A DNA stretch of 64,000 nt from Peristeroidobacter soli (GTDB lineage: Bacteria > Pseudomonadota > Gammaproteobacteria > Steroidobacterales > Steroidobacteraceae): NCBI RefSeq assembly GCF_004138485.1, contig NZ_RYEV01000003.1:868001-932000 (forward strand), in the 5' to 3' direction. How positions within the stretch are numbered: the stretch's first letter is position 1; every line of letters begins with the position of its first letter. The position numbers were made by a program, and so were the translations under genes. This document shows, piece by piece, positions 565 to 14,849 of this stretch. The notes under the pieces are model-generated. The model was not told the origin of the DNA. It saw only the letters and a list, made by a program, of their open reading frames with translations, and searched no databases.

Positions 565-1355
565 CCATGAATGTTTATGACTTTCACCAGGGCTCGGTGC
601 CGCTGCTGATCAGCATTCCGCATGCGGGCACCCATGTGCCGGAAGCGATCGCGCAACGCTTCACGCTGGCGGGCGGTCACCTGGCCGATACCGATTGGCA
701 CGTTCATCATCTTTATGACTTCGCGCGCGATCTGGGCGCGTCGATCCTGAAGGCGAACTACTCGCGCTACGTCGTGGACCTGAATCGCTCGCCGGATTCG
801 TCGTCGCTGTACGTCGGCAAGCCAACCTCGCCGGTGTGCCCGCTGCTGACGTTCAATGACGAGCCCATTTACGCGCCGGGTCGCGAGGTCACCGCAACCG
901 AAATCGATGCGCGGGTCGAGCAATACTGGCAGCCGTATCATCGGCGCCTGATCGAGGAGTTGCAGGTCATCCGTCAGCGCCATGGTCATGCGTTGCTTTG
1001 GGATGCGCATTCGATTGCGAGCGAAGTGCCCTCGTTGTTCATCGGTGTGTTGCCCGAATTCAACTTCGGCACGCGTGACGATGCGAGCTGTCCGCGCGCG
1101 GTCGCGGATCAGCTGCTCGATCTGGTGACAGCCGATGGCAAGTTCGGCGCCGTGCTGAACGGCCGCTTCAAGGGCGGTTACATCACGATGAAGTATGGTC
1201 GGCCGCAGGAAGGCGTGTATGCCGTGCAGCTGGAGCTGTCCCGACGCGTATACATGGATGAGGCTGCCGGTACCGGCTGGAATCCCGAGCGGGCGACATC
1301 AGCGCAGACCCTGATTTCCCAGCTGCTGACGCGCTTTCTGAAGGCGCGCGCCTAA
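561..1355 (+). CDS. hutG: N-formylglutamate deformylase (amidohydrolase)
   Basis: 264 residues. It hydrolyses N-formylglutamate to glutamate and formate, the last step of the HutF branch of histidine catabolism. Family motifs include SIPHAGTHVP near the N-terminus, DTDWHVHHLYDF, SRYVVDLNRSPD and LLWDAHSIAS, all typical of the zinc-dependent N-formylglutamate amidohydrolase fold. I chose the GTG at 561: it gives a GTGA overlap with the hutF stop and has AAGGAT about 7 bases upstream. The ATG at 567 is the alternative and removes two residues. The stop codon overlaps the convergent response-regulator stop at 1352-1355, leaving no intergenic terminator. Confidence 0.93.
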   Translation: MTMNVYDFHQGSVPLLISIPHAGTHVPEAIAQRFTLAGGHLADTDWHVHHLYDFARDLGASILKANYSRYVVDLNRSPDSSSLYVGKPTSPVCPLLTFNDEPIYAPGREVTATEIDARVEQYWQPYHRRLIEELQVIRQRHGHALLWDAHSIASEVPSLFIGVLPEFNFGTRDDASCPRAVADQLLDLVTADGKFGAVLNGRFKGGYITMKYGRPQEGVYAVQLELSRRVYMDEAAGTGWNPERATSAQTLISQLLTRFLKARA

Positions 1356-1735
1356 CAAGCGTTCGATTCGACGGCGATGGCCGAGGCCTGCACGGCCGCG
1401 ATGACCTCGGCGGGCAGGAAGGGCTTGCCGATGAAACCCAGCGGCCGCAGCCCGGCGACCTTTTTACGCACCTCGTCGTCGATGTTTGCACTGATGAACA
1501 AACATCGAATGCCGTGCTCTTCATACAACTGATGCGCGACGTCGATGCCGCTCTCGCCGTGCGCCAGCCGAAGATCCATGATGGCGATGTTGGGAGGCTG
1601 ACGCGCAGCCGCGGCCATCGCGCTGGGGCCGTCGTGCGCGACCTCGCTGACCCGGTGCCCCGCCTCTTCCACCAGGTCCTGCAGGTGAATGGCGATCAGC
1701 ACCTGATCTTCGACGATCAGGACTTCGAGTCCCAT
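1352..1735 (-). CDS. Single-domain response regulator (CheY-like)
   Basis: 127 residues made of one receiver domain. The acidic pocket is EDQ near residue 10, the phospho-acceptor is D54 in IMDLRLAHG, and the conserved lysine lies in FIGKPF near the end. There is no output domain, so it works as a phosphate carrier or by protein contact. It is the last gene of the minus-strand stressosome operon. Its ATG lies inside the 3' end of the preceding kinase gene (19-base overlap), so translation is probably coupled. An upstream in-frame extension through the neighbour's sequence is rejected because residues homologous to receiver domains begin at this ATG. I infer that it is a phosphorylation target of one of the two kinases encoded just upstream. 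Confidence 0.88.
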   Translation of the reverse strand: MGLEVLIVEDQVLIAIHLQDLVEEAGHRVSEVAHDGPSAMAAAARQPPNIAIMDLRLAHGESGIDVAHQLYEEHGIRCLFISANIDDEVRKKVAGLRPLGFIGKPFLPAEVIAAVQASAIAVESNAC

Positions 1736-2778
1736 GTCGCTGCGGGCTGCTGTGGGAGTGGGAATGTGATGTGAGCGGCGTAGCCGTCGGTGTGCTCGAC
1801 GCTGAGTTGTCCGCTCAGTTGCCGCACCAGCATGCTGATGAGGCGGGTTCCCAATCCGGTGGAGGGCTTCGCGGCGCTGGCCGGGTCGCCGGCGACCAGG
1901 CCCGGGCCGTTGTCGGCGATGGTGAGTCGTGCCTGGCCGGGCTCGATCCGGCGCAGACTGACCTTGATGATGGCGGAGCGGTCGTTCGGTCGACCATGCT
2001 TCAAGGCGTTCATCACCAGCTCGTTGACGATCAGCGCCAGCGAGACCCCGTGCTCGGTCGGCAGTCGCATCGGCTCGATGGCGGGGCGCAGATCGGCATG
2101 TCGTTCGTCGCCGATGCCGGCGCGTGCCAGCTCGGCGCACAGGCCGCTGAGATAAGTCTGCATGTCGATGGTGAGCGGATCGGTGTCCTGATACAGGCGC
2201 TCGTGAATCGACGCAATGGCGGTGACGCGGGCGATGGCCTTGGCGAACAGTTCCTTCGCGCCGGCCTCGCGGAATTCGCCGCCTTGCAGGCTGAGCATGC
2301 TGAGCACCAGCTGCAGGCTGTTCTTCACGCGATGATTCACTTCACGCAGCAGCAGCTCACGTTCCGCGAGCGAACGGCGCAACTCGGCTTCGACTCGATG
2401 TAGACGCAGCAGCGCGCGAGCGACCGCTTCGAGTTCTTCGGGCTCCATCGGCTCGACCAGGAAACTGTCCGCGCCGGCCGAGAGTGAATTGACTCGATCG
2501 AGCACGGCGATGTTGGTGGCCGAGACCTGCAGTACCATGATGCCCGCGGTGTCCGGATCGGATTTCAGCTGTCGGCAAACATCGATGCCGCTCATGTCGG
2601 GCAGGTTCACATCCAGCACTACCAGCTGCGGCGAGGCGCTGCGCGCCAGTCGCAAGGCTTCCTTGCCGGTGCCGGCTTCGAGCACTTGAAAACCGGCGCG
2701 GTTGAGAATGCGCGTGGTCGCGTACCGGCCCGGCTCGTTGTCGTCGACGTTGAGGATGATCTCAGGCTTGGCTGGCAT
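1717..2778 (-). CDS. Receiver domain / HWE-HisKA_2 family histidine kinase
   Basis: 353 residues. Residues 1-120 form a receiver domain with D56 in VVLDVNLPDMSG. Residues 130-350 are a HisKA_2/HWE-type kinase: the phospho-acceptor is H149 in REVNHRVKNSLQ, the N-box is NELVMNALKHG, and later come DNGPGL and GLGTRL. In the receiver the usual Lys-Pro after beta strand 5 is replaced (SFLVEPMEPEEL), which may change how phosphorylation is sensed. The start at 2778 has GGGAGAAG upstream, and the gene overlaps the previous kinase by 17 bases. No membrane segment is present. It probably receives phosphate from the hybrid kinase and passes it on, as one of the stressosome output proteins; this is inference from gene order. 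Confidence 0.88.
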   Translation of the reverse strand: MPAKPEIILNVDDNEPGRYATTRILNRAGFQVLEAGTGKEALRLARSASPQLVVLDVNLPDMSGIDVCRQLKSDPDTAGIMVLQVSATNIAVLDRVNSLSAGADSFLVEPMEPEELEAVARALLRLHRVEAELRRSLAERELLLREVNHRVKNSLQLVLSMLSLQGGEFREAGAKELFAKAIARVTAIASIHERLYQDTDPLTIDMQTYLSGLCAELARAGIGDERHADLRPAIEPMRLPTEHGVSLALIVNELVMNALKHGRPNDRSAIIKVSLRRIEPGQARLTIADNGPGLVAGDPASAAKPSTGLGTRLISMLVRQLSGQLSVEHTDGYAAHITFPLPQQPAATWDSKS

Positions 2779-4555
2779 GATGAACTTCTCCCGGGCTGCT
2801 GGCGCGCCGGATCGCGGCCGCGACGGACTCGCGTGACAACTCGCTCTTCAACAACAGGCCGCTGGCGGCGGCGGCCTGTTCCTCGCCGATGTCGTCGGGT
2901 CGCTGCGAGGTGAACAGAATGACCGGAATGGGCCGGGTCTCCTCGATGGCCTTGAGCATCTTCAACACTTCCAGGCCGTGCACGTCGGGCATGGCCAGAT
3001 CGAGGAAGATCAAGTCGGGGCGCGACTGGCGCGCGAGACGCAGCCCGTCGTAGCCGCCGTTCGCTTCGACCACTTCGAAGCTGCTGCTCGGCAGGAACTG
3101 GCGGAGCGCATAGCGCTCGATCTCGCTGTCATCGACGATCAATACCCGCTGCGCACTGCGTGTCACGGGCAGCTCGGGCGTTCCGATCGGTGTCGTTGCT
3201 GCCAGTCGTACTGGAATTGCCAGCGAGAACACCGAGCCTTTGCCCAGCTCGCTGGCAATGTCGATGCTGCCGCCGAGCAGACCCGCCAGCTTTTGCGACA
3301 GGGGCAGACCGAGGCCGGTGCCCTTGACGCTTTTCTGCAGCGGATTCTCGACCTGCGTGAATTCGTCGAAGATATGCCGATGATGGGTCGCGGCGATGCC
3401 GATACCGGTGTCAGCAACAGAGAACACGATCATGTCGGTGTCGGCTGCCAGTCTCGCCGTGACGCGCACCGAGCCGATCTCGGTGAACTTCAGCGCATTG
3501 GAAATGAGATTGCGCAGGATCTGCGAGACCTTGCCCTGATCGGTGTGCAGCTCGGGCAGCGCGCCGATCTCCTCGAAGCTGAGCGAGACCGTGTCCTTGA
3601 TGCTGAGCGGCTTGAACATGCCACGCAGCGCGCCGAACAGATCGGTGACGTTGAACGACTCGACGCGCAGCTGCAATTTGCCGGACTCGACTTTGCGCAG
3701 GTCGAGCAGATCGTCGACCATGGTCGAGAGTTGTTCGGCGGCCTGACGGATGTAGGTGACTTGTTTCTCCTGCTCGGCGCTCAGCTCGCCGTCGAGCCGA
3801 TGCAACAGGATTCTGGACAGCGCCAGGATGGAATTCACCGGCGTGCGGAATTCATGACTGACCGCCGACAGGAAGCGCGTCTTGGTTTCGTCGGCGAGAC
3901 GCAGGTGCGCGGCGCGCTCTTCCAGCTCGGCATACAGCGCCATCACGCCCCGATTCGTGTCCTCGAGCTCCGCGTTGAGCCGCGCCAGTTCTTCCTTGCG
4001 CAGACGCAGTTCTTCCAGGCTGCGCAGCAGCTCGCGATTCTGCTGTTGCATCTCGGCGGTAGGATCGGCCGCGCCATAGGCGGACAGCTGATCCGCGATG
4101 GTCGCGACGCGCGTCGGCGTGAAGCTTTCGATCCGGCGCGGCAGAAACTTGCCGAGGGTAATGGTCGTGCCCCGGCCCTTGCCGGAATAAACGTCGAACG
4201 TATCCATCAAACGACGCGCGGCGACCAGGCCCAGCTTCAATTCGCCACTGCCCGAATCGGTGATCGCATCGTCCAGGTTGGCGATGCCCGGACCGTGATC
4301 GCTGATGATGACCTGTAGCAACGGAGTGGCCGGCATGCTGGCGCCATGCGGCGGAGCTTCGGTCACCATGAACTCGATGGTGCCGCCGCCGGCGTGGCGC
4401 ATGGCGTTGCGCGCCAGCTCGGACACGGCCGTCGCGATGCGCACCTGATCCTGGGAATCGAAACCGAGCAGGGCACTGACCTGCCGCGCGCGCTGCCGGG
4501 CTGCGACGATGTCGCGGTCTTGCGCGAGATCCAGACGTAGCAAAGAGCGGTTCAT
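2762..4555 (-). CDS. RsbT-like ATPase / histidine kinase / receiver hybrid
   Basis: 597 residues with an unusual order. Residues 1-140 are an RsbT-type GHKL domain (SELARNAMRHAGGG, SDHGPGI, LKLGLVAARRL). A coiled coil follows at about 165-220. Then comes a HisKA dimerisation domain with H234 in SAVSHEFRTPVNSI, a HATPase domain (NLISNALKFT, DTGIGI, GTGLGLPLSQ), and a C-terminal receiver (RVLIVDDSEIER, FLDLAMPDVHG). The ATG at 4555 overlaps the upstream stop as ATGA; the frame is open further upstream but that stretch is the neighbour's coding sequence. RsbT-like input fused to a His-Asp relay suggests it links stressosome switching to a two-component output. The N-terminal domain resembles serine kinases or anti-sigma factors; whether it is catalytic is unknown. 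Confidence 0.87.
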   Translation of the reverse strand: MNRSLLRLDLAQDRDIVAARQRARQVSALLGFDSQDQVRIATAVSELARNAMRHAGGGTIEFMVTEAPPHGASMPATPLLQVIISDHGPGIANLDDAITDSGSGELKLGLVAARRLMDTFDVYSGKGRGTTITLGKFLPRRIESFTPTRVATIADQLSAYGAADPTAEMQQQNRELLRSLEELRLRKEELARLNAELEDTNRGVMALYAELEERAAHLRLADETKTRFLSAVSHEFRTPVNSILALSRILLHRLDGELSAEQEKQVTYIRQAAEQLSTMVDDLLDLRKVESGKLQLRVESFNVTDLFGALRGMFKPLSIKDTVSLSFEEIGALPELHTDQGKVSQILRNLISNALKFTEIGSVRVTARLAADTDMIVFSVADTGIGIAATHHRHIFDEFTQVENPLQKSVKGTGLGLPLSQKLAGLLGGSIDIASELGKGSVFSLAIPVRLAATTPIGTPELPVTRSAQRVLIVDDSEIERYALRQFLPSSSFEVVEANGGYDGLRLARQSRPDLIFLDLAMPDVHGLEVLKMLKAIEETRPIPVILFTSQRPDDIGEEQAAAASGLLLKSELSRESVAAAIRRASSPGEVHHASQA

Positions 4556-5547
4556 GGGGGTGTGCGTCGAATGACAACAATCAGGGAATCGTCGCGACCG
4601 CGCCGGCAGTCCCGATATAACACGCCGGCGATCAATGCCGCGTGATGTTGTATCAGTCCCGGATAGCGGTCGGCTTGCCAGTTCGCGGTGAGGCCGTCGG
4701 AATGCAGTACCAGCACGGTGTCGGGCTGGCACGAGTATGTCAGTTCGCGGGGGCGGGAGATCACGTGACCGACGATGCCGTTGTCGGTGGCGATGCGCTT
4801 GGTCTCGGTGCCGTTGATCATCGCGGCCGCGACGTTACCGACGCCGAGGCTGGTGATCCGGCCCGCATCCCAATCGACTTCCAGCAATGTGACCGCGGCA
4901 CCCCGGGTCGGGCGAAGACCGTCGTGCAGACTCTGCATGAGGCGCGACACAGGTCGATGTTTCTCCGCCTCGAAGATACGACACGCCTCGGTGGCGGCCT
5001 GTTCCGCGCCGAGGCCATGACCGAGGCCATCGATGCCGGCGACCAGGACTCCTTCGACGCGCTCGTGATGACACCAGCAATCGCCGCACGCGACCTCGCC
5101 CGGTTTCGGTACCACCAGCGCACCGATCTGCGTGGGGCTGGGCGGCGGTTCGCGTGAGTCGGGCCACAGCTGAGCCAGCACGGCGGTGCCTCGCCCGAGA
5201 CGGGAATAAATCTCGAAGCGTTGTGACAGGCGTTCCATCGCGCCCAGGCCGGTGCCGGGACTGCCGCTGGTGGAATAACCGTCGCGCAGGCATCTGGAAA
5301 CATCTTCCATGCCGGGGCCCTTGTCGAGGCCGAGCAGCTCCAGTCCGATGCGGTTGTCACGCGAGATCTTCTGCGCGATCAGCTCGCCGCCGCCGCCATG
5401 CTTCACCAGATTGGTGCCGATCTCGGTGGCGACCAGCGCGGCTCGGCCGGCATCCTCCACATCGAAACCCAAGCTGGCGGCAAGTGTGCCGATGCCGCGT
5501 CGGGCGGACGCGACGGCACTCGGATCGCCGATCGAAAACTGTTGCAT
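4552..5547 (-). CDS. RsbT-like ATPase fused to RsbX/SpoIIE-type phosphatase
   Basis: 331 residues. Residues 1-130 are a GHKL ATPase domain of RsbT type (TEIGTNLVKHGGGG, DKGPGMED, GSPGTGLGAMERL). Residues 140-331 are a PP2C-like domain resembling RsbX/SpoIIE: D173 in GIDGLGHG and the late acidic pair in VLHSDGLTANW are the metal-binding positions. In Bacillus, RsbX dephosphorylates RsbS and RsbR to reset the stressosome, so this protein is likely the feedback phosphatase. The start codon directly follows the rsbT stop (TAAATG), with GGAA within the rsbT end as ribosome site. The fusion of a kinase-fold domain to the phosphatase is the notable feature. Confidence 0.87.
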   Translation of the reverse strand: MQQFSIGDPSAVASARRGIGTLAASLGFDVEDAGRAALVATEIGTNLVKHGGGGELIAQKISRDNRIGLELLGLDKGPGMEDVSRCLRDGYSTSGSPGTGLGAMERLSQRFEIYSRLGRGTAVLAQLWPDSREPPPSPTQIGALVVPKPGEVACGDCWCHHERVEGVLVAGIDGLGHGLGAEQAATEACRIFEAEKHRPVSRLMQSLHDGLRPTRGAAVTLLEVDWDAGRITSLGVGNVAAAMINGTETKRIATDNGIVGHVISRPRELTYSCQPDTVLVLHSDGLTANWQADRYPGLIQHHAALIAGVLYRDCRRGRDDSLIVVIRRTPP

Positions 5548-5952
5548 TTATTTCCAACGAGTAATGGTCACGCGAGTGCCTACGCCGGGCTGCGACCAGA
5601 TATCGAATTCGTGGGAAAGCTTCCGTGCTCCATTCAGTCCCAGACCCAGGCCGTTGCCAGTGGTGTAACCGTCGGTCAAGGCCAGATCGAGGTTGGTGAT
5701 CCCCGGACCTCGGTCCTCGAAAGTGAGGCGCACTCCCGCGCGCTTCGGGCCCTGGTTCAGGCGCTCGATGCGGCATTCGCCGCCGCCGCCGTAAGTCAGC
5801 GTATTGCGCGCCAGTTCGCTCGCGGCAGTGATGACTTTGGTTTGATCGACCAGGCTGAAGCCGAGATCCATGGCGAGAGTGCGCACGGCTTGACGGACCT
5901 TGACCACGTCTTCGCCGGAACGCACGGGCAACGTGGTTGGTTCAATCGACAT
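5548..5952 (-). CDS. rsbT: Stressosome serine/threonine kinase RsbT
   Basis: 134 residues, the normal size for RsbT. It is a single GHKL-fold kinase with N-box SELARNTLTYGGGG (around 45-58), G1 box EDRGPGI (79-85) and G2 box TGNGLGLGLNGARKL (98-112). In characterised stressosomes RsbT sits on the RsbR/RsbS shell, phosphorylates both on stress, and is then released to activate a partner. The ATG at 5952 gives an 11-base overlap with rsbS; an ATG four codons upstream (5964) is possible. The natural Bacillus partner RsbU is not encoded in the window, so a downstream kinase or phosphatase fusion is the likely client. Confidence 0.93.
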   Translation of the reverse strand: MSIEPTTLPVRSGEDVVKVRQAVRTLAMDLGFSLVDQTKVITAASELARNTLTYGGGGECRIERLNQGPKRAGVRLTFEDRGPGITNLDLALTDGYTTGNGLGLGLNGARKLSHEFDIWSQPGVGTRVTITRWK

Positions 5953-6325
5953 GGCTGCTTTCATCGCTCCGGTCGAGCACGTTGCGCAGCAAGGCCAGGC
6001 CGGCATCGACGTTCAGAGCGGTGCGGATGCCGGGCAGCGACAATCCGAGCTCGACCAGCGTGATGGCCACCGCGGGCTGCATGCCCACGACGACCGTCTG
6101 CGCATCCAAGATGCGGGACATCCCGGCGATGTTGCCCAGCATGCGGCCGATGAACGAGTCGACCATTTCCAATGCGGAAATGTCGATGAGCACGCCGCGC
6201 GCCTTGGTGGCGACGATCTTGTTGGTGAGATCGTCCTGCAAGGTCATCGCCAGCTCATCGTGCATGTCGACCTGGACGGTGACCAGCAGGCAATCGCCCA
6301 GACGCAGAATCGGGACGCGATCCAC
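5942..6325 (-). CDS. rsbS: Stressosome scaffold protein RsbS
   Basis: 127 residues forming one STAS domain. S57 in EMVDSFIGR matches the position of the serine phosphorylated by RsbT in Bacillus RsbS. The flanking LIDISALEMVDSF and VVVGMQPAVAITLVELGL are strongly family-like. RsbS co-assembles with RsbR into the icosahedral stressosome and retains RsbT until phosphorylated. Translation starts at a GTG (6325), with GAGGA in the last codons of rsbR as ribosome site, and only 4 bases separate the two genes, so the two scaffold subunits should be made in a coupled way. Confidence 0.94.
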   Translation of the reverse strand: MDRVPILRLGDCLLVTVQVDMHDELAMTLQDDLTNKIVATKARGVLIDISALEMVDSFIGRMLGNIAGMSRILDAQTVVVGMQPAVAITLVELGLSLPGIRTALNVDAGLALLRNVLDRSDESSHVD

Positions 6326-6329
6326 GGCG

Positions 6330-7199
6330 TTATCCTCGCGCAGCGGACGATGAAATGACGCTCAGACCGCGACGTTTCAACGCCAGGGCGAAGGCGTCGG
6401 ACAGGCTGGCCTTGGTCGCGACCGCCGAGAGGTCGATGCCGAGGTGCACGATGGTCTGGGCGATCTGAGGACGGATGCCGCTGATGATGCAGTCCGCGCC
6501 CATCAGCTGCGCGGCCGACACGGTCTTGAGCAAGTGTTGAGCGACCAGCGTATCGACGGTCGGCACGCCGGTGATGTCGATGACCGCGATGCTCGAACCG
6601 GTGGCGACCAGTCGTTCCAGCAGGGTTTCCATCACGACCTGGGTGCGCTCGCTGTCCAGCGTGCCGATCAGCGGCAAGGCCAGGATGCCGGGCCACAGCT
6701 CGACCACCGGAGTGGACAGCTCGATCAGCTCCTCCTGTTGACGAGCGATCACCGATTCACGCGCCTGTTGATACACCTCGGTGGTGTACAGACCCATGGA
6801 GTCGAGCAGCAGGGTCGTTTCCCACGAGGCGTCGGCCAGCACCTCCGGCTCATCGAGCAGGTTGGCACGCAGGCGGGCGAAGATGGGCTGCTTCAGCGAG
6901 AACACGAACGTCGCCACCTGCGACGGTGAGAAACCCTGGGTGGCACGGCTGCGGGACAGCTCGGCGAGGAAATCGCGAATGTCGGCCCACTGCGCGCTGC
7001 GGGTGTCGAACTGCACGCCTTTCTGGATGTTGTTCACCAGCAGGGTCAGGAAGCGTTGCGATTCGTCGCGCAACTGCGATTCCTGTAAACGGCCGGCGCG
7101 CCACGTGCCCGCTTCCAATTGTAGTTTGACCCACTCGGTGAGAATTTCTTGTTGATACTGCTCGACCATGGCCGGCAGTCGACTTGCCAGTCGGTTCAT
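6330..7199 (-). CDS. rsbR: Stressosome sensor-scaffold protein RsbR
   Basis: 289 residues. Residues 1-150 are an all-helical sensor domain of the kind in Gram-negative RsbR proteins (MVEQYQQEILTEWVKLQ, then SPSQVATFVFSLKQPIF). A linker helix follows to about 165, and the STAS domain runs from about 167 to 280. The STAS core IAVIDITGVPTVDTLVAQH and ISGIRPQIAQTIVHLGIDL holds T217 and T249, which appear to match the two threonines phosphorylated by RsbT in Bacillus RsbRA. No heme or flavin motif is evident in the N-domain, so the sensed signal is unknown. The ATG at 7199 has AGGAG at good spacing. It is the first gene of the stressosome operon. Confidence 0.92.
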   Translation of the reverse strand: MNRLASRLPAMVEQYQQEILTEWVKLQLEAGTWRAGRLQESQLRDESQRFLTLLVNNIQKGVQFDTRSAQWADIRDFLAELSRSRATQGFSPSQVATFVFSLKQPIFARLRANLLDEPEVLADASWETTLLLDSMGLYTTEVYQQARESVIARQQEELIELSTPVVELWPGILALPLIGTLDSERTQVVMETLLERLVATGSSIAVIDITGVPTVDTLVAQHLLKTVSAAQLMGADCIISGIRPQIAQTIVHLGIDLSAVATKASLSDAFALALKRRGLSVISSSAARG

Positions 7200-7335: not shown

Positions 7336-7363
7336 GTTACGCGCGACGGCGCAGGACGGTTCC
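7336..7363 (-). promoter_or_regulatory. Candidate ECF-type promoter upstream of rsbR
   Basis: On the minus strand, GGAACC (7363-7358) is followed after 16 bases by CGTAAC (7341-7336). This is the pattern of many extracytoplasmic-function sigma promoters (GGAAC, 16-17 bases, CGT). It would leave a leader of about 130 bases before the rsbR ATG. It sits in the 204-base gap between the GGDEF/EAL gene and rsbR, the only gap large enough for a dedicated stressosome promoter. It was found by eye only and such short motifs occur by chance. Confidence 0.33.
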
Positions 7364-7403: not shown

Positions 7404-8978
7404 TCAGGCGCTGGCGACTTTGAGCAGATCGGTCTCGACGTCGTTCAGGCCGAGCGGCCGGCCGTTGAGGAATTCGCGGCATTTACTGGCGGGCGCGGGC
7501 TCGGCGAACAGATAGCCTTGCGCGTACCGGCAGCCGAGCTTGCGAAGCATCTCCAGCTGCGACCAGCCTTCCACGCCCTCGGCGATCACCTTGATCTTCA
7601 GGTGCTGGGCCATCGCGATGATGGCGCCGACGATGGCGTGATCGTTGGAATCGGTGCCCAGATCGCGAATGAAGCTGCGATCGATCTTGAGGTAATCGAC
7701 CCGCCAGCGCTTCAAATAGCTGAGCGAGGAATAGCCGGTGCCGAAGTCGTCGATGGCGACACGCACGCCGAGCGCACGCAGGTCGTTGATGGCGTCGACG
7801 CCGTCTTCACTGCCATTCGAGCCGTGACGCGACTCGACCTGATCGAACATCGCACCCTCGGTCAGCTCGATCTGGAGCATGGCCGGGCTGATGGAATTAA
7901 CTTGTGTCAATTCAGCAATGCGCTGACGCAGGTCGCAACGTGACAACTGGCCCGGTGAGATGTTGATCGCCACCGGTACCAGCACTGAGTTGCCGGCCTT
8001 GCGCCACTGGACCATGTCGTCGATGACGCGCTGGATCACGAAGTCGCCGAGCCCGGCGATCAGCCCGGTCTCCTCGGCGACCGGAATGAACCGGGTCGGC
8101 GAGACATAGCCGTCGATCGGATGTTTCCAGCGCACCAGCGCTTCCAGCGTCACGACCCGGCGGGTCTCGATGTCGATCAGCGGCTGGTAGTGCACGTCGA
8201 GCTGGGTTTGCGATTCCAGCGCGGCGCGCAGGCTCGCTTCGATGGCGACGCGTTCCTTCAACTGCCGGTCCATGACCGGACTGAACACCTGGAAGTTGTT
8301 CCGGCCGCGATCCTTCGCTTGATACATCGCCGTGTCCGAATGGCGCAGGAGGGCTCCCACATCTTCGCCGTCGCGCGGGAACATGCTCACGCCGACGCTG
8401 GCCGTCGTGACGAGCGGCTTGCCATCGATTTCCAACGGCACCGCCAGTGCGCTGGTGATGCGTGATGCGGTTTCCTGAACCTGGTTGCTGCTGCGGACGA
8501 TGTTGAGCACGACCACGAATTCGTCACCGCCCATGCGTACCACGATGTCCTCGTTGCGCACAGCGTCTTTGATTCTTTGCGAGACCGATTGCAGCAGCTT
8601 GTCGCCGGTTTCGTGACCGTGCGTGTCGTTGACGTGCTTGAAGCGGTCGAGGTCGATGAACAGCACGGCCAGCGCCGCTTTCTTGCGGCGGGCCTCTTCG
8701 ATGGCTGCGGGCAGATGCGCCGAGAGGAACAGGCGATTGGGCAGGCCGGTCAGCTGATCGTGATGCGCGAGCCGATCGAGCCGCTGCTGTTTCTCCAGCA
8801 ACTGCGCTTCGATCTTGCGGCGGACCATGCCGCCGTGCTCCACCTGCTCGATGAATTGCTGATGTCGCGACTCCGCTTCGACGACACGTACGTCCAGCTT
8901 ACGGATGCGCAGTTGCAGGAAGATTGCCCAGGCGACGGCGCAGAGTGCGGTGATGGCACAAACGGCAAGGTAGAACAT
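7404..8978 (-). CDS. GGDEF/EAL cyclic-di-GMP turnover protein
   Basis: 524 residues. One membrane segment (about 3-22) is followed by a coiled coil (30-70), a GGDEF domain and an EAL domain. The diguanylate cyclase signature GGDEF is intact at 150-154, and an inhibitory I-site RNED lies at 141-144, exactly five residues before it. The phosphodiesterase signature is EALVRWKHP at 279-287, with the later DDFGTGYSSLSYL, KIDRSFIRDL and AEGVE motifs also intact. Both activities are therefore possible. It lies between the phytochrome genes and the stressosome on the same strand, which suggests that light or stress signals feed into c-di-GMP, as inference. The ribosome site before the ATG is weak. 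Confidence 0.93.
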   Translation of the reverse strand: MFYLAVCAITALCAVAWAIFLQLRIRKLDVRVVEAESRHQQFIEQVEHGGMVRRKIEAQLLEKQQRLDRLAHHDQLTGLPNRLFLSAHLPAAIEEARRKKAALAVLFIDLDRFKHVNDTHGHETGDKLLQSVSQRIKDAVRNEDIVVRMGGDEFVVVLNIVRSSNQVQETASRITSALAVPLEIDGKPLVTTASVGVSMFPRDGEDVGALLRHSDTAMYQAKDRGRNNFQVFSPVMDRQLKERVAIEASLRAALESQTQLDVHYQPLIDIETRRVVTLEALVRWKHPIDGYVSPTRFIPVAEETGLIAGLGDFVIQRVIDDMVQWRKAGNSVLVPVAINISPGQLSRCDLRQRIAELTQVNSISPAMLQIELTEGAMFDQVESRHGSNGSEDGVDAINDLRALGVRVAIDDFGTGYSSLSYLKRWRVDYLKIDRSFIRDLGTDSNDHAIVGAIIAMAQHLKIKVIAEGVEGWSQLEMLRKLGCRYAQGYLFAEPAPASKCREFLNGRPLGLNDVETDLLKVASA

Positions 8979-9126
8979 TGCGACAGGCGTTCAACTTCGA
9001 CGCCGCAGTGTCGCGAAATGCCGTCATCGGCCGCCGGATGTGGCGCACACTTTTGGGCCGCCCGAGCCGGGGACGGCCAAAACTTCGACGCAGGACCGGT
9101 TTATGACTTAACAGTTGTTACGCGTG

Positions 9127-9765
9127 TTACGCAGCGGGCGCGGTGCGCAGCTGCAAATCGTTGGCGGCCTGACTGAAGGCGCGGATGAACATGGTGAAGG
9201 CGTACACCGCGCCGGACACGGTCTGAGTCTGATCGTCGGCGGCTTCGTGCGTCTCGAGCAGTTCCAGGAAGCTGCGCCACAGGCTGCTGCCTTCGCCCGG
9301 CTGGCCGTGACGCAGATAGGTCGAAGCGTTGCGAACGTTCTCGTCGTGGCTGGCCTGCACTTGATCCAGTTGCACACGCGCGCCGAGACGCGAACCTTCC
9401 AACACGTACAGGATGCCGAACACTTCCGAAGGCGTCGGCGCGGTACGGCGGAGGGCGAGCGGTTGCACATCGGAATGAAGGTTGTGCAGATCGGCAAGGA
9501 TGGCTGCGCGACGCGACCGCTGCGGCCAGTCCGGCAACAGTTGTTCGACGCTCGCGTTCTCCAGCAGCTGTTCGATCGCGATCAGCGTCGCCGCGTTGGC
9601 CTGCAGGAAACGCCGGTAGTGCGTGACATCGGCCAGGTTGAATCCAGCCGCGATCCGGTCGAGATCACGGTGCAAATGATCGGTCGCGCCGCGTAGCGAA
9701 TTGCGACGATTCAATTTGCGGCCGGCCGTCACTGGGCCGCCCGCGGGCGATTCTTCAATTTGCAT
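9127..9765 (-). CDS. bphO: Heme oxygenase for bilin synthesis (BphO-like)
   Basis: 212 residues. Heme oxygenases split heme to biliverdin, iron and CO. The N-terminal LRGATDHLHRDLD holds H32 at the spacing of the proximal heme ligand (T plus four), and FGILYVLEGSRLGARV is the distal helix signature. Sequence divergence from HmuO/HemO is strong, typical of the BphO group. It lies 8 bases downstream of a hybrid kinase in the bacteriophytochrome operon, so its likely role is to make the phytochrome chromophore rather than to obtain iron. The N-terminal 20 residues are poorly conserved and the start could be a little later. Confidence 0.88.
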   Translation of the reverse strand: MQIEESPAGGPVTAGRKLNRRNSLRGATDHLHRDLDRIAAGFNLADVTHYRRFLQANAATLIAIEQLLENASVEQLLPDWPQRSRRAAILADLHNLHSDVQPLALRRTAPTPSEVFGILYVLEGSRLGARVQLDQVQASHDENVRNASTYLRHGQPGEGSSLWRSFLELLETHEAADDQTQTVSGAVYAFTMFIRAFSQAANDLQLRTAPAA

Positions 9766-9773
9766 GTCGAGCT

Positions 9774-12158
9774 TCAGTCCTGACCGTCGAGCACGCTACG
9801 AATGCGCGCTGCCAAGTCATCGAAAGCGAAAGGTTTGGTGATGAGTTCCACGCCCGGGTCGAGTCTTCCATGATGCACGATCACGTCGCGGGCATAGCCG
9901 GTCGCAAACAGCACCTTCAAGTGCGGATGGAGTACCACGGCCTGCTGTGCCAGTTGCTGGCCGTTCATGCCTCCCGGCAGCACTACGTCACTGAACAACA
10001 AGTCGATGTCGCCGGCGGGCGTCTGACGCAGTACGTTGAGTGCGTTGACGCCGTCGCGCGCTTCGAGCACATCGTAGCCAAGCTCCCGCACGGTCTCGAC
10101 GGTAAAAGCGCGTACATCGGGATCGTCTTCTACCACCAGAATGGTCTCGCGCTCGGCGGCGAGCGACGATTCACATTGACTGTCGTCCTCGGGCACTTGC
10201 GCATCCGGTCGAGCGGCGGGCAGATAGATGCGAATCGAGGTGCCGGCGCCGTCCGTCGAGGCGATACGTACCTGTCCGCCCGACTGGCGCACGAATCCAT
10301 AAACCTGTGATAACCCGAGGCCGGTACCCTGACCGACACTCTTGGTCGTGAAGAACGGCTCGAACGCCCGTGCCAGCACTTCGGGCGGCATGCCGGTGCC
10401 GGTATCGCGAACGTTGATGACGACGTATTCGCCCCGCGGCAGATTCTCCGCCGTGGTGTGCGGCGCGTTACGCGTGTCCAGATTGAATGTTTCTATGCTG
10501 AGCTTGCCGCCGTGGGGCATGGCGTCGCGCGCATTGACCGCCAGATTCAACAGCGCGATCTCGAGTTGATTGCCGTCGATCTCGACGTGCCGCAAGTCGG
10601 GCGCCATCGCGGTCTCGACCAGGATCAATTCACCGAGGGTCCGCTGCATCATCTCGGACATGCCGGCGACCAGCCGATTGACCGCGACCGGGCGCGGATT
10701 CAACGGCTGTTTGCGTGAGAAGGCGAGCAGATGCTGAGTGAGATTGGTCGCGCGCTGTGCGCCGGCCATCGCGTGATCCGCCGCCCGGCGCAAACGGTCC
10801 AGATTCGGCGGCAGCTTGCGTTGCAACGTTTCGATGTTACCGACCACGACCTGCAACAGATTGTTGAAGTCATGCGCCAGACCGCCGGTGAGCTGACCGA
10901 CGGCTTCCATCTTTTGCGCCTGACGCAGGGCTTCCTGCGCTTCTTCCAGCTGAGCTTGCCCGGCCTTGTCTTCGGTGATGTCCCGACCGACCGCGTAGAT
11001 GCAGCCGTGACCGAGCGCCGTCGACCATGAGACCCAGCGGGTCTCGCCGTCGCGGCACAGAAACCTGCATTCGAACGGGCGCTGATTTTCCAGCGCGGCT
11101 TGCGCCACGGACTGCCGGACTGCGGACGCGTCGTCGGGATGGGCGAACTTCGACAGATGCTCGCCGACCACTTCGCTGGTTCCATGGCCGAGCGAGGCTT
11201 GCCACGCGGGATTCACTTCGATGAGCGCGCCGACCGGCGTCATCACGGCCATCAGATCTTTAGACAATTGCCACAAGTGATCGCGCTCGGCGGTCTTGTG
11301 CGCGACGCGCAGAGTCAATGTTTGGTTCAGATCGTGGAGCGCGGTCTCGGCCTGCTTGCGCTCGGTGATATCGTTGACGATACCGATCAGGCGGGTGCAG
11401 CAGCCGCTGTCGTGGAACGAGCGACCCGAGAGTGAAACCCAGCGTTCCTGCGCGTCACCCGCCCGGACGATGCGAAACTCGGTGGCGATGTTGCTTGCGG
11501 TAGCGGCACGCAAGGTCTCGTTGAAGATCGATTCGATGCGCAGCCGATCGCCGCTGTGGCAGCTCTTGAGAAACGCTTCCCGATCGGGCACTGCCTGGGG
11601 CACGAGCCCGAACAGCTCGCGACAACGCGCGTCCACATCGAACGTGCCGGTGGCGGGATCGAATTCCCAGCGGCCGAGGCCCGCGGTTGCGATGGCAAGC
11701 TGCGCGCTGGTCTCGCTGATACGCAGCGCCTGTTCGGCCCGCACGCGGTCCTGACGTTCGCGCGCTTCAGCGACGGCGCGATCGACCGCCGCCGGCAGAC
11801 GACTCAAGCCGCGCTTCATCACATAGTCAGTCGCGCCCCGGCGCAAGGCATTGATGGCGAACTCTTCGCCGACCACGCCGGACACGAAAATAAATGGCAT
11901 CTCGGGGCAGCGCTCGCGCACGATGTCGAGTGCCGCGAGCCCATCGAAGTCGGGCAGGGAATAATCCGCGAGCACCACGTCGTAAGCGCCGCTGCCGATC
12001 TCGCGCATGAAGTCGTCGCGCGTGGCGACACGGCAGACCGTGCTCTCAGTCCCGGCTTTCGACAGGTGAGTGATGGCGAGCTCGGCATCGATCTCGCTGT
12101 CCTCGAGCAACAGAATGCGAGTCGGCGAGTACAGGCGGGAAGCGAGCTCGGCGGCCAT
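9774..12158 (-). CDS. Hybrid sensor histidine kinase: REC-PAS-PAS-HisKA-HATPase-REC
   Basis: 794 residues. It begins with a receiver (ILLLEDSEIDAEL; acceptor Asp in VVLADYSLPDFDG), followed by two PAS domains (about 145-270 and 300-400). Next is the HisKA helix with the acceptor His in GGLAHDFNNLLQVVVGN, then a HATPase domain (NLAVNARDAM, DTGTGMPPEV, GQGTGLGLSQVYG) and a C-terminal receiver (ILVVEDDPDVRAF; Asp in LFSDVVLPGGMNG). No membrane segments are seen, so it is cytoplasmic. It starts 2 bases after the stop of the phytochrome response regulator, so the two are almost certainly co-translated. A receiver at each end makes it a plausible relay hub for the phytochrome signal. Confidence 0.9.
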   Translation of the reverse strand: MAAELASRLYSPTRILLLEDSEIDAELAITHLSKAGTESTVCRVATRDDFMREIGSGAYDVVLADYSLPDFDGLAALDIVRERCPEMPFIFVSGVVGEEFAINALRRGATDYVMKRGLSRLPAAVDRAVAEARERQDRVRAEQALRISETSAQLAIATAGLGRWEFDPATGTFDVDARCRELFGLVPQAVPDREAFLKSCHSGDRLRIESIFNETLRAATASNIATEFRIVRAGDAQERWVSLSGRSFHDSGCCTRLIGIVNDITERKQAETALHDLNQTLTLRVAHKTAERDHLWQLSKDLMAVMTPVGALIEVNPAWQASLGHGTSEVVGEHLSKFAHPDDASAVRQSVAQAALENQRPFECRFLCRDGETRWVSWSTALGHGCIYAVGRDITEDKAGQAQLEEAQEALRQAQKMEAVGQLTGGLAHDFNNLLQVVVGNIETLQRKLPPNLDRLRRAADHAMAGAQRATNLTQHLLAFSRKQPLNPRPVAVNRLVAGMSEMMQRTLGELILVETAMAPDLRHVEIDGNQLEIALLNLAVNARDAMPHGGKLSIETFNLDTRNAPHTTAENLPRGEYVVINVRDTGTGMPPEVLARAFEPFFTTKSVGQGTGLGLSQVYGFVRQSGGQVRIASTDGAGTSIRIYLPAARPDAQVPEDDSQCESSLAAERETILVVEDDPDVRAFTVETVRELGYDVLEARDGVNALNVLRQTPAGDIDLLFSDVVLPGGMNGQQLAQQAVVLHPHLKVLFATGYARDVIVHHGRLDPGVELITKPFAFDDLAARIRSVLDGQD

Positions 12159-12160
12159 GG

Positions 12161-12628
12161 CTATCTCTTCTCGATGCCGGACATGGCAGCCATGCGCGGC
12201 GGGGTTTCGTTCAGGACACCCCAGAACATGCCCAGATCCTGGATGGCTTCGAAGAAGGCATTGAAGTCCACCGGTTTGACCACGAACGCGTTGACGCCCA
12301 GCTCATAGCTGCGCACCAGATCGCTCTCCTCGCGCGAGGAGGTGAGCATGACGACCGGCACCGAGCGGGTAGCGACGTTCGACTTGATCTTGGCCAGCAC
12401 TTCCAGGCCGTCGACCTTGGGCAGCTTCAGATCCAGCAGCACCACGGCCGGGTCGCCGGGCGGACGATCCTTGTACTGTCCGCGACAGTATAAGTAGTCG
12501 AGTGCTTCCGCGCCGTCGCGGGCCACGACGATGTCGTTGGCCAACTGGCACTTGGCCAGCGCGGCCAGAGTCAACTCGATATCTTTCAGGTTGTCTTCGA
12601 CCAATAGGATGGGTCGCAGATCAGCCAT
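12161..12628 (-). CDS. Phytochrome-associated response regulator (Rcp1-like)
   Basis: 155 residues, a single receiver domain of the Rcp1/BphR type, with the long loop before beta-3 (YLYCRGQYKDRPPGDP) typical of that group. The phospho-acceptor is D66 in VVLLDLKLPKVDG, and the conserved lysine is in FVVKPVDFNAF. The ATG at 12628 has AAAGGAG upstream and overlaps the phytochrome stop by 8 bases; the in-frame stretch further upstream is phytochrome sequence. Rcp1-type regulators are the usual phosphate acceptors of bacteriophytochrome kinases and act without DNA binding. Confidence 0.92.
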   Translation of the reverse strand: MADLRPILLVEDNLKDIELTLAALAKCQLANDIVVARDGAEALDYLYCRGQYKDRPPGDPAVVLLDLKLPKVDGLEVLAKIKSNVATRSVPVVMLTSSREESDLVRSYELGVNAFVVKPVDFNAFFEAIQDLGMFWGVLNETPPRMAAMSGIEKR

Positions 12629-14849
12629 CGACGCTTGCTCCTTTATGAGGTATGCCAAAGCGGAATTCCGCGCCTTCATCGACGGCACCGCGCGCTTCGA
12701 TCCAGCCGCCGTGACGCTCGATGATCCGGTGGGTCAATGCCAGGCCAATGCCCGTACCGGCAAAATCCTCCATGCGATGCAGCCGCTGGAACACGCCGAA
12801 CAGCTTGTGGGCATACGCCATGTCGAAGCCGACGCCATTGTCGCGCACTGTGTAAACGCACTCCGACGCAAGTTGTTCACCGCGGATCTCGACGATCGCG
12901 GGTGAGCGGTCCCGGCTGTACTTGAGCGCGTTGTCCACCAGGTTGTACAGCGCCTGGCGCAGCAGGGCGGCGTCGCCGGTCGTGGGCGGCAGCGGCTGGA
13001 TGCGCCATTCGATCTGCCGGCCGCGCACGTCGGGTTCGACCGACCGGACGATCTCCTGCACGACTTTCTGCATGTCCACCGGCAACACCGACAGCGCCGT
13101 GCGACCGAGCTGCGAGAAGCTCAGCAGGTCGTCGACCAGTTGGCCGGCCGAGGCCGCGGCCTCATTGATGCTGTCCAGGTAATGCAGCGATTGCGCGCTC
13201 AGCGATTGCTCACGATCTCGCAGCAGCTGGGTGTAGCCGACGATGTGCCGGAACGGTGCGCGCAAGTCGTGACTGACGGAATAGGAGAACGACTCCAGTT
13301 CCCGGTTCGACCGCTGCAGCTGGCTGGTGAGCTCGGCGCGCTCCTCGGCACGGCGAAGCACGAAGTTGATGATGGCGCTCCGGAAATCCAGCGCGCCATC
13401 GATCTCAGCCTGCGACCACGGCAGGGCGCGGCCTTTGACCAGTTCTTTCCAGCTGGTGAACGAATTGCGCGGATGCAGTCGTTCATTCTCGATCTGCTTC
13501 GCTTCGCCCGGATCGCCGGCCCACAACACCGTGCGCTCGACTTCGGGGCGGAACCAGAAGATGTAACTGGGATGCAATTGTGAGATCGAGATTGCCAGCA
13601 CCCCGCTCGCCACGTCGACGATGTCGGCAAACTCCGGCCACTGCTGTCCCAACCGGTCGGTGACGAAGGAGTCGGCGCCTTCACTCTGAAGTTTCTCCGT
13701 GAGCGCGCGCAGCCGGTCAGGCGCGGGCGTGACTCCGGCGGTAAACAGCAAATCGTCATGCAGGACCGCCGCGCCCGCCGCGCCGGCGATTTTCAGCCAG
13801 GTATTGGCGTGAGTGCCGAGGCCGCTTTGGAATGAATCGCTGGCCGCGATCTTGGTCAGCAGCTCACTTTCCACGCGCTTCAGATCGATACGTTTGGCGG
13901 CGTACGCGCCACGTTCACGCGCGCCGATATGCTGAGACAACACTTGGCCCAACAGATCGCACGCCGTTCGAGCCTGTGCGTTCACCCGACGGGGCGAGGC
14001 GTTGTGACAGGACACCAGGCCCCACAGTTTTCCATCCACCAGCACCGAGATGGACATCGACGCGAGCGTGCCCATGTTTCGCATGTATTGGAGATGCACC
14101 GGCGAGACGCTGCGCAGGGCGGCGAAACTCAAGTCCAGCGGCGCGCCGCCCGGATCGAGCGGCGGCTCGATCGGCACTGGTGTGTAGTTCGCATCGGGAA
14201 TGACGCGCAGCCGGTTCAGGCGATACAGCTCGCGCGCCTGAGTTGGAATGTCCGACGCGGGAAAGCGCAGCCCGGCGTAGGAGGGCAGCACGCCGTCGCC
14301 ATCCTCGGCCAGCACTTCGCCATTCCATTGCTCGTCGAAACGATAGATCAGAATTCGATTGAAGCCGCTGATCTGCCGGAACTCGCGCGCGGCGGCCGAG
14401 CACAGCTCGGCGATGTTTTCATGAACGGGCAGGTCTTCCATGAAGCGGCCGACGCGCGGGTAGTACGCTTCGAGCGTCTCGCCTTCGCTGGCGGGCGGTT
14501 GCTCGAATTCCAGAATGATTCCCTGCGCGGTCTGATGGCCGAGCACCTGCAGGCGCTGACCGTTGATGTCCAGGGTTCTTAGATAACTGCTGTCCGGATT
14601 GGCCAGCCAGGCGTTGATCTGGCGCTCGGCCGTTTCACCGACCAGCTCGCTCAGCGACAGGCCGAGCACGGCCGAGCTGCGGCCTGTGCCAAGCAACGCC
14701 CGTGCATTGGCGCTGGCTTGCACGATCCGCCGGCTGCTGGGATCTACAACCACAAGCGACCCGTGCGGCTGAATGCTGCCCGGAATCCGGATAGGTTCTT
14801 GCGCGCATAGGTCGAGGTTGAGATCGGATGTTGAGACCGCTGACACCAT
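12621..14849 (-). CDS. bphP: Bacteriophytochrome (red/far-red sensor histidine kinase)
   Basis: 742 residues with full PAS-GAF-PHY-HisKA-HATPase order. C15 in the N-terminal extension (LNLDLCAQEPI) is the expected biliverdin-binding cysteine of bacterial phytochromes. The GAF domain has PASDIP at 197-202 and H252 in SPVHLQYM. The PHY tongue has WFRPE (432-436) and PRNSF (460-464). The kinase acceptor is H527 in SVSHDLRAPF, followed by NLVDNALKYS, DNGVGF and GTGIGLALTHRI. The ATG at 14849 was chosen because phytochrome homology begins directly after it; the frame is open for 72 codons upstream but that stretch has no family resemblance. It is the first gene of a bphP-regulator-hybrid kinase-bphO operon, so chromophore, sensor and relay come from one transcript. 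Confidence 0.95.
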   Translation of the reverse strand: MVSAVSTSDLNLDLCAQEPIRIPGSIQPHGSLVVVDPSSRRIVQASANARALLGTGRSSAVLGLSLSELVGETAERQINAWLANPDSSYLRTLDINGQRLQVLGHQTAQGIILEFEQPPASEGETLEAYYPRVGRFMEDLPVHENIAELCSAAAREFRQISGFNRILIYRFDEQWNGEVLAEDGDGVLPSYAGLRFPASDIPTQARELYRLNRLRVIPDANYTPVPIEPPLDPGGAPLDLSFAALRSVSPVHLQYMRNMGTLASMSISVLVDGKLWGLVSCHNASPRRVNAQARTACDLLGQVLSQHIGARERGAYAAKRIDLKRVESELLTKIAASDSFQSGLGTHANTWLKIAGAAGAAVLHDDLLFTAGVTPAPDRLRALTEKLQSEGADSFVTDRLGQQWPEFADIVDVASGVLAISISQLHPSYIFWFRPEVERTVLWAGDPGEAKQIENERLHPRNSFTSWKELVKGRALPWSQAEIDGALDFRSAIINFVLRRAEERAELTSQLQRSNRELESFSYSVSHDLRAPFRHIVGYTQLLRDREQSLSAQSLHYLDSINEAAASAGQLVDDLLSFSQLGRTALSVLPVDMQKVVQEIVRSVEPDVRGRQIEWRIQPLPPTTGDAALLRQALYNLVDNALKYSRDRSPAIVEIRGEQLASECVYTVRDNGVGFDMAYAHKLFGVFQRLHRMEDFAGTGIGLALTHRIIERHGGWIEARGAVDEGAEFRFGIPHKGASVDG

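What the first reader, a model, noticed from the sequence alone, without database searches (positions are those of the whole stretch)
1352..14849. Bacteriophytochrome operon joined to a complete Gram-negative stressosome
Twelve same-strand signalling genes run from bphP to a terminal receiver: bphP, Rcp1-like regulator, hybrid kinase, bphO, GGDEF/EAL, then rsbR, rsbS, rsbT, RsbT-RsbX fusion, RsbT-kinase-receiver, receiver-HWE kinase, receiver. The domains and motifs are seen in the sequence. Stressosome modules linked to two-component genes are known in Gram-negatives, for example in Vibrio, but tandem linkage to a full red-light sensing and chromophore-making operon is not something I know of. 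It suggests that light and general stress feed one output network.
Basis: partly seen in the sequence, partly recalled or inferred. Interest (0 to 1): 0.82.

Follow-up and report, generated by a model that had tools for sequence, protein, structure and literature searches.

The report
Neighbouring light and stress signalling operons
In one small group of soil bacteria a red-light sensor operon sits next to a stress-sensing operon; the adjacency looks like an accident of one lineage, but both operons begin with the same kind of general-stress promoter, and the genome carries a general-stress switch that was thought to belong to another class of bacteria.

Summary
All twelve genes are there, at the stated coordinates, on one strand. 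They are two known modules side by side: a bphP-rcp-hybrid kinase-bphO cassette plus a GGDEF/EAL gene, and a common rsbRST-(RsbT/RsbX)-kinase module. The adjacency occurs in one Steroidobacter clade (5 of 14 genus genomes, 2 of the 5 across contig breaks). A relative (G005) has the stressosome at the same site without the five-gene block; Povalibacter has the four-gene cassette and a diverged stressosome on different contigs. Almost the whole window is collinear in the clade, so conserved adjacency proves nothing. Outside the genus group 1 of 72 stressosome loci has a phytochrome within the fetched flanks, on the other strand. What may connect them is promoters: GGAAC-N16/17-C[GA]T[TA] sites precede rsbR (8 of 11 genomes) and bphP (6 of 6, unlinked Povalibacter included). 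The genome holds a phyR-nepR-ecfG-HisKA_2 kinase locus, a general-stress switch described in print as alphaproteobacterial; nepR carries the motif in 13 of 13 genomes. Best reading: two transcription units of one EcfG-type stress regulon, the stressosome's terminal HisKA_2 kinase and PhyR-like receiver plausibly feeding PhyR. Sigma recognition and phosphate flow are inferred.

The parts
12621..14849 (-). bphP, bacteriophytochrome histidine kinase (PAS_2-GAF-PHY-HisKA-HATPase), 742 aa from ATG 14849
   Evidence: Cys before the PAS domain seen in the translation (its role recalled, not tested)
12161..12628 (-).
9774..12158 (-). hybrid kinase REC-PAS-PAS-HisKA-HATPase-REC
9127..9765 (-). bphO heme oxygenase (biliverdin supply)
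   Evidence: Pfam 33.5 bits, cut-off 23
7404..8978 (-). GGDEF-EAL protein; present with the cassette in the linked clade, not found in the fetched Povalibacter cassette region or at the G005 site
6330..7199 (-). rsbR, RsbRD_N + STAS
5942..6325 (-). rsbS, single STAS domain
5548..5952 (-). rsbT, HATPase switch kinase (open frame to 6006; start uncertain)
4552..5547 (-). RsbT-like HATPase fused to SpoIIE/PP2C phosphatase (RsbX role)
2762..4555 (-). RsbT-like HATPase + HisKA-HATPase-REC hybrid kinase (open frame to 4732; start uncertain)
1717..2778 (-). REC + HisKA_2/HWE histidine kinase
   Evidence: kinase part 39% identical over 217 aa to the kinase of the phyR locus
1352..1735 (-). single-domain receiver, PhyR-receiver-like (start uncertain)
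7338..7363 (-). EcfG-type promoter-like site GGAAC-N17-CGTA upstream of rsbR
   Evidence: same type in G005, whose site lacks the photo block
14885..14910 (-). EcfG-type promoter-like site GGAAC-N17-CATT upstream of bphP
16632..16657 (-). EcfG-type promoter-like site upstream of the hemerythrin gene (15976-16599), neighbour
20517..20542 (-). EcfG-type promoter-like site upstream of mdoG (18844-20478), neighbour

Best explanation
Two separately evolved signalling operons lie next to each other. (1) A photoreceptor operon: bphP, its Rcp1-like receiver, a hybrid kinase and bphO, with a GGDEF/EAL gene behind it. (2) A widespread stressosome operon, RsbR-RsbS-RsbT-(RsbT/RsbX)-(RsbT/hybrid kinase)-(REC-HisKA_2)-REC. 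In this clade the photo block occupies the space between a GNAT acetyltransferase gene and rsbR. Each operon starts with its own GGAAC-N17-C[GA]T[TA] site. I propose that both are transcribed by the EcfG-type sigma factor of the phyR-nepR-ecfG locus found elsewhere in the same genome, so general stress raises both the red-light sensor and the stressosome. The stressosome probably signals by release of RsbT, acting on the RsbT-domain hybrid kinase. The last two gene products (REC-HisKA_2 kinase and PhyR-like receiver) are of the kinds that phosphorylate PhyR or relay to it, so the stressosome probably feeds the same switch and closes a positive loop. Shown: gene content, distribution, synteny, the PhyR-NepR-EcfG genes, motif conservation. 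Inferred: recognition by EcfG, stressosome assembly, and every phosphotransfer step, including any from BphP.
For: Domain content. Same site without the photo block in G005, and cassette plus diverged stressosome on different contigs in G007. Collinearity of the window (45 of 47 called genes found in order in G011, 45 of 47 in G010, 46 of 47 in G001 over two contigs). PhyR-NepR-EcfG-HisKA_2 kinase locus. nepR motif in 13 of 13 genomes with a NepR match. rsbR motif in 8 of 11 and bphP motif in 6 of 6. In the rsbR gap 9 of 9 motif positions are invariant in six sequences against 22 of 215 other columns. In 1.144 Mb of own chromosome GGAAC-N16/17-CGT[TA] lies upstream of genes in 8 of 27 places, against 7.4% pooled for 29 permuted -35 words. 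Alphaproteobacterial stressosome loci carry the motif in 7 of 25, other loci in 2 of 41 (shuffle expectation 0.10 and 0.26, permuted -35 control 0.12 and 0.62). The published EcfG motif is GGAAC-N16-CGTT in R. etli; two listed EcfG-dependent genes of S. melonis have putative sites that begin GGAAC and end in CATT.
Against: The motif was first noticed in this very window, so its clustering here is partly circular. Genome-wide GGAAC-N16/17-CGTT is not in excess: 148 places against 213 for the reversed control. rsbR of G012, G022 and G058 lacks it, and most alphaproteobacterial loci do too (18 of 25). The -10 words differ (CGTA, CATT, CGTT). The Povalibacter bphP site lies 196 bp before the start codon I used, not 61. 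One permuted -35 word, GAACG, had more upstream hits (9 of 45). Not all genes with a site look stress-related. No terminator was seen between the GGDEF/EAL gene and rsbR, so read-through from the photo operon is possible. I found no transcript or phosphotransfer data for these genes.
Confidence: 0.62

Rival explanations
1. Incidental neighbours: the photo block came to lie between GNAT and rsbR once, and has stayed because gene order in this clade is hardly ever broken. There is no functional link between light and stress.
For: Window collinearity. One clade only, united at 100/100 in the rpoB tree (G005 not in it). G005 and Povalibacter separate the two. Outside the genus group 1 of 72 loci has a phytochrome within the fetched flanks, about what chance gives by my own estimate.
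Against: Both operons and several neighbours carry EcfG-type sites that are conserved while the sequence around them is not. The unlinked Povalibacter bphP carries one too, though further upstream.
Confidence: 0.25
2. One dedicated light-stress system: a single transcript, and BphP or its hybrid kinase phosphorylates the stressosome's receivers directly.
For: Same strand, short gaps, no terminator in the gaps. All five linked genomes keep the order, two of them only as inferred across contig breaks.
Against: rsbR has its own conserved promoter-like site, which is also there in G005 without the photo block. Each module occurs without the other. The order is no better conserved than the surroundings.
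Confidence: 0.1
3. The GGAAC sites belong to another ECF sigma factor (RpoE/AlgU type, whose -35 is also GGAACTT), so the operons answer envelope stress and not the PhyR switch.
For: The E. coli RpoE -35 box is GGAACTT (passage of PMC8103513). bphP in the five linked genomes and hemerythrin in three of four have GGAACTT. mdoG and an outer-membrane beta-barrel gene are among the genes with a site.
Against: The rsbR sites of the linked clade and G005 read GGAACC, not GGAACTT, and the nepR-ecfG operon itself carries GGAAC-N16/17-CGTT in 13 of 13 genomes (there too the -35 reads GGAACTT). A scan for GAACTT-N14..16-TC[TA][GA]A found none in 344 kb.
Confidence: 0.15

Closest known systems
Four-gene RSTX stressosome module of Gram-negatives (Vibrio vulnificus; PMC9237108)
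   Same: rsbR, rsbS, rsbT, PP2C feedback phosphatase, then output genes; downstream HisKA/REC relays are described there
   Different: RsbR has RsbRD_N, no globin found by Pfam; the phosphatase is fused to an RsbT-like domain; the operon ends in a HisKA_2 kinase and a PhyR-like receiver; EcfG-type promoter-like site
Bacteriophytochrome operon of Ramlibacter tataouinensis (PMC6848086)
   Same: heme oxygenase, BphP1, CheY-like regulator and atypical hybrid kinase in one putative operon
   Different: gene order; here followed by GGDEF/EAL and a stressosome operon
PhyR-NepR-EcfG general stress response of Alphaproteobacteria (PMC3892343, PMC4598750)
   Same: phyR divergent from nepR-ecfG and a HisKA_2 kinase; PhyR with sigma-like and receiver domains; GGAAC-N16/17-CGTT before nepR
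   Different: found in a gammaproteobacterial genus; PMC3892343 calls EcfG exclusive to Alphaproteobacteria
MrrA/SdrG FATGUY single-domain receivers (PMC5964349)
   Same: single-domain receiver of the PhyR-receiver kind, here next to a HisKA_2 kinase
   Different: the FATG motif is not matched here (FISAN in its place); no phosphotransfer known

Membership tests
Stressosome RSTX module | RsbR (sensor domain + STAS), RsbS (STAS), RsbT (HATPase) in order | tested here: met
Stressosome RSTX module | RsbX-type PP2C phosphatase after rsbT | tested here: met
   SpoIIE/PP2C domain in 4552-5547, fused to HATPase_c_2; that it acts as RsbX is inferred
Stressosome RSTX module | Phospho-accepting Ser/Thr in RsbS and RsbR | not tested
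   candidate residues seen by eye; no alignment to a studied protein was made
Stressosome RSTX module | Assembly of RsbR and RsbS into a stressosome particle | not testable with these tools
   only sequence similarity to solved RsbR chains
Vibrio-type globin-coupled stressosome | Heme globin domain in RsbR | tested here: not met
   Pfam finds RsbRD_N and no globin family
RsbU-type output | RsbU_N domain in a downstream target | tested here: not met
   no RsbU_N match at E<=0.001 in the stressosome proteins
Bacteriophytochrome operon | PAS-GAF-PHY kinase with heme oxygenase | tested here: met
Bacteriophytochrome operon | Biliverdin attached to the N-terminal Cys and red/far-red switching | not testable with these tools
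   Cys seen; position recalled from the family
PhyR-NepR-EcfG general stress response | PhyR with sigma-like and receiver domains | tested here: met
   PF22029, PF22233 and Response_reg above cut-offs; NF006623 369 bits, cut-off 240; Caulobacter control rings
PhyR-NepR-EcfG general stress response | NepR next to an ECF sigma factor | tested here: met
   NepR PF18557 53.3 bits, cut-off 25.7 (the NCBIfam NepR equivalog, 34.9 bits, stays under its cut-off of 100); ECF sigma 8807-9451 of L202; closest PDB chain 5uxx
EcfG regulon | GGAAC-N16/17-CGTT promoter | tested here: inconclusive
   rsbR has CGTA, bphP has CATT; conserved but no expression data and no genome-wide excess

The most novel reading that the evidence does not exclude
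In Steroidobacter the stressosome (the Gram-positive sensor hub) is wired into PhyR-NepR-EcfG (the alphaproteobacterial partner switch): RsbT released from the stressosome acts on the RsbT-domain hybrid kinase; phosphate passes through the REC-HisKA_2 kinase and the PhyR-like receiver to PhyR; EcfG is freed and transcribes the stressosome operon, the red-light sensor operon and its own operon. Two general-stress systems known from different bacteria would form one circuit with a light input, and stressosome operons with an EcfG-type site in Bradyrhizobium and relatives would be wired in the same way.
Probability: 0.33. Interest if true: 0.85.

Novelty: new variant of a known kind. Interest (0 to 1): 0.6.

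Why it matters
It replaces an adjacency argument, which fails against the synteny background, by a testable regulatory one. What Gram-negative stressosomes act on is poorly known: PMC4976288 calls the downstream partner of V. brasiliensis RsbT unknown, and PMC9237108 says little is known of their function (passages). A genus with a stressosome whose operon ends in a HisKA_2 kinase and a PhyR-like receiver and starts with an EcfG-type site, in a genome that has PhyR, NepR and EcfG, makes that output directly testable. The PhyR-NepR-EcfG set in a gammaproteobacterium also contradicts the printed statement that EcfG is exclusive to Alphaproteobacteria (PMC3892343).

Tried and rejected
Rejected: conservation of adjacency as proof of coupling. 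A wider phytochrome-stressosome association: of 80 named loci (best 80 of 413 relatives) a phytochrome or bphO hit lies in L054, L055 and L062 (bphO only), all Steroidobacter, and in L059, an uncultured Sphingomonas MAG where a BphP-HWE-REC gene lies on the other strand beyond intervening genes; many loci have flanks under 10 kb. Of 17 class genomes with the RsbT/RsbX fusion, one (G175, a draft) has a phytochrome, on another contig. Horizontal origin of the photo block from base composition: GC 0.634 against 0.641 for the rsb block and 0.627 for the window, not informative. Insertion or loss: unresolved. G005 lacks the block at the site, but in Povalibacter a GNAT gene 61% identical to the window's lies about 3.3 kb from the cassette, which would fit an older linkage and a loss in G005.

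Led nowhere: a first rpoB tree with mixed frames, replaced. G005 has no rpoB match, so its place in the species tree is not known. A NepR/EcfG comparison read in a wrong frame, replaced; I use only the receiver and kinase comparisons. Plasmid search with the RsbT-hybrid kinase: 23 records, 17 of them Deinococcus, not followed up. PhyR_sigma2 in the class sample: 34 of 369 at E<=1e-17, but of the six loci given only the two of this genus are PhyR; the best match of three of the other four covers PhyR's sigma part alone and the fourth gave no match; the remaining 28 genomes were not examined. The second phytochrome of the genome (C1:979355) is a different one (30%). In one search, 6 of the 80 loci were dropped for want of an rsbR match or of 250 bases upstream. 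No structure prediction was run.

Papers. Passages were seen of PMC6848086, PMC4976288, PMC9237108 (its section 10 read in full), PMC3999984, PMC4598750, PMC3892343, PMC6599016, PMC5964349 and PMC8103513; all others only as search listing with the start of the abstract. Stressosome with phytochrome gave 9 papers (8 listed) and bacteriophytochrome with RsbR 3; no title or abstract start there describes a stressosome next to a phytochrome operon, and of these I opened only PMC6848086. Steroidobacter with phytochrome: 0 papers. EcfG with stressosome: 2 papers; the passages I saw do not link them. The PhyR-with-Gammaproteobacteria listings show no title on a gammaproteobacterial PhyR; none of those papers was opened.
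Full report
OBSERVATION. The twelve genes are real and lie where stated. Searches give the translations and the domains. The order from bphP is: phytochrome kinase (start best at 14849), receiver, REC-PAS-PAS-HisKA-HATPase-REC, heme oxygenase, GGDEF-EAL, RsbRD_N-STAS, STAS, HATPase, HATPase-PP2C, HATPase-HisKA-HATPase-REC, REC-HisKA_2, receiver. The cluster ends convergently on an N-formylglutamate amidohydrolase gene (FGase).

WHERE IT IS. The window is C2:868001-932000 of a 9.37-Mb genome. NCBI places Steroidobacter in Gammaproteobacteria.

THE ADJACENCY. Of 14 genus genomes (own included), 10 have the RsbT/RsbX fusion protein and 7 have a PHY domain. Both modules lie on one contig in G000, G010 and G011. 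In G001 and G008 the contigs break inside the cluster and the pieces are consistent with the same order. These five form one clade in the rpoB tree (support 100/100; G005 gave no rpoB). G005 carries the stressosome at the same site: FGase, the seven rsb-operon genes, then GNAT 138 bp from rsbR, and hemerythrin further on; the five genes GGDEF/EAL-bphO-hybrid kinase-rcp-bphP are missing. G005 is 84% complete, so I claim absence at the site only. In Povalibacter bphP-rcp-hybrid kinase-bphO (51-85% identical) lies near the middle of a 1.2-Mb contig and a diverged stressosome (39-69%) on another contig. G003's phytochrome is a different one (35%), on a 5.2-kb contig. G005, G006 and G012 have a stressosome and no PHY match.

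BACKGROUND SYNTENY. A crude gene call on the window gave 47 genes. Found and in the same order: 45 in G011, 45 in G010, and 46 in G001 over its two contigs. Keeping bphP beside rsbR for the age of this clade is therefore no more than the neighbourhood does.

WIDER SEARCH. In 80 named loci (best 80 of 413) the order rsbR-S-T-TX followed by kinases recurs in Proteobacteria, Acidobacteria, Cyanobacteria and others, so the stressosome half is ordinary. Eight of the 80 belong to the genus group. Of the other 72, one (L059) has a phytochrome within the fetched flank, on the opposite strand. That is near what I would expect by chance (own estimate, from recall: two phytochromes per 5 Mb in some of the genomes). 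The photo half matches the operon of Ramlibacter tataouinensis: heme oxygenase, BphP1, CheY-like, atypical hybrid kinase (passages of PMC6848086).

PROMOTERS. Aligning the gap before rsbR showed GGGAACC...GCGTA kept in all five linked genomes and in G005. In the form GGAAC-N16/17-C[GA]T[TAC] the site precedes rsbR in 8 of 11 genomes examined (not in G012, G022, G058), bphP in 6 of 6 (at -61 in the five linked genomes, at -196 from the start used in unlinked Povalibacter), hemerythrin in 4 of 4, DUF2934 in 2 of 5, and the GGDEF/EAL gene in 0 of 4. Starts in relatives were taken from tblastn and are approximate. In the rsbR gap all 9 motif positions are invariant in six sequences against 22 of 215 other columns (the column range was my choice). 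In 1.144 Mb of the own contig GGAAC-N16/17-CGT[TA] occurs 27 times, 8 of them upstream of a gene on the same strand. For 29 permuted -35 words the pooled fraction is 7.4% (the highest, GAACG, 9 of 45), and for GGAAC with eight other spacer ranges 1 to 4 are upstream. Four of those 8 lie in this window of 64 kb (binomial 6e-4), but the motif was found in this window, so that figure is partly circular. Genome-wide the CGTT form is not in excess (148 against 213 in the reversed control). Of seven further genes with a site scanned by Pfam, some look stress-related (superoxide dismutase, Transgly_assoc protein), others not evidently (outer-membrane barrel, HAD hydrolase, receiver, CDP-alcohol transferase, one without a match). 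In the window mdoG, a Sir2 gene and a glycine-zipper gene have one.

THE SIGMA FACTOR. All 14 genus genomes match PhyR_sigma2 (Caulobacter rings as control). PhyR aligns over its full length in 12 of the 14 and only in part in G005 and G009. In the own genome (L202) phyR is divergent from nepR-ecfG, followed by a HisKA_2 kinase. The Pfam models NepR, PhyR_sigma2 and PhyR_sigma-like and the NCBIfam PhyR model pass their cut-offs; the NCBIfam NepR model does not (34.9 of 100 bits). The closest solved chain of PhyR is 3n0r and of the sigma factor 5uxx. nepR carries GGAAC-N16/17-CGTT in 13 of 13 genomes with a NepR match; G009 gave no NepR match. PhyR is 51-57% identical to those of the 29 other-class loci compared. 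In a phylum sample 73 of 398 genomes match PhyR_sigma-like at E<=1e-13; apart from the own genome all 72 are listed as outside the class (how many class members the sample holds is not shown). PMC3892343 states that EcfG is exclusive to Alphaproteobacteria (passage).

LINK TO THE STRESSOSOME. The terminal receiver's best NCBIfam family is PhyR (2.8e-24; 86 bits, below that model's cut-off of 240, as expected for a receiver alone). The REC-HisKA_2 kinase is 39% identical over 217 aa to the kinase of the phyR locus. In Caulobacter a FATGUY single-domain receiver, MrrA, relays phosphate from several kinases to PhyK and so to PhyR (passages of PMC5964349). Among stressosome loci the EcfG-type site before rsbR is found in 7 of 25 alphaproteobacterial loci and 2 of 41 others (Fisher 0.02), which fits lineages that own EcfG. 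My assignment of loci to Alphaproteobacteria was by record title; 6 of the 80 loci were dropped before the count.

CONCLUSION. The finding is two known operons side by side in one clade, probably co-regulated as members of an EcfG-type general stress regulon, with a stressosome whose last two gene products look built to talk to PhyR. The adjacency is not the evidence; the promoters and the PhyR locus are. Insertion or loss of the photo block at the GNAT-rsbR site is undecided.

Noticed in passing
L202 7653-11376 (own genome C2, about 0.55 Mb from the window): phyR-nepR-ecfG-HisKA_2 kinase locus in a gammaproteobacterial genus; PhyR_sigma2 matches in 14 of 14 genus genomes.
   Followed up: partly
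window 16632, 20517, 37121, 37745: EcfG-type sites before hemerythrin, mdoG, a Sir2 gene and a glycine-zipper gene; the window looks rich in such sites.
   Followed up: partly
L079, L084, L085, L073, L111, L120, L129: Alphaproteobacterial stressosome operons with GGAAC-N16/17-CGTT upstream of rsbR (7 of 25).
   Followed up: partly
L040 8600-18010: Povalibacter photo cassette has a GNAT gene 61% identical to the window's GNAT about 3.3 kb away on the other strand, hinting at an older linkage.
   Followed up: no
L059 1033-3705: Uncultured Sphingomonas MAG with a BphP-HWE-REC gene near, but opposite to, a stressosome operon.
   Followed up: partly
L173 9894-10334: RsbW-like HATPase_c_2 protein near a YscD-like protein in the own genome.
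   Followed up: no
L049 8407-10281: Second, divergent phytochrome (30%) in the own genome; no rcp, hybrid kinase or bphO hit in the 20 kb fetched.
   Followed up: no
L172 6462-8484: In G405 a GGDEF-like stretch lies just upstream of rsbR.
   Followed up: no
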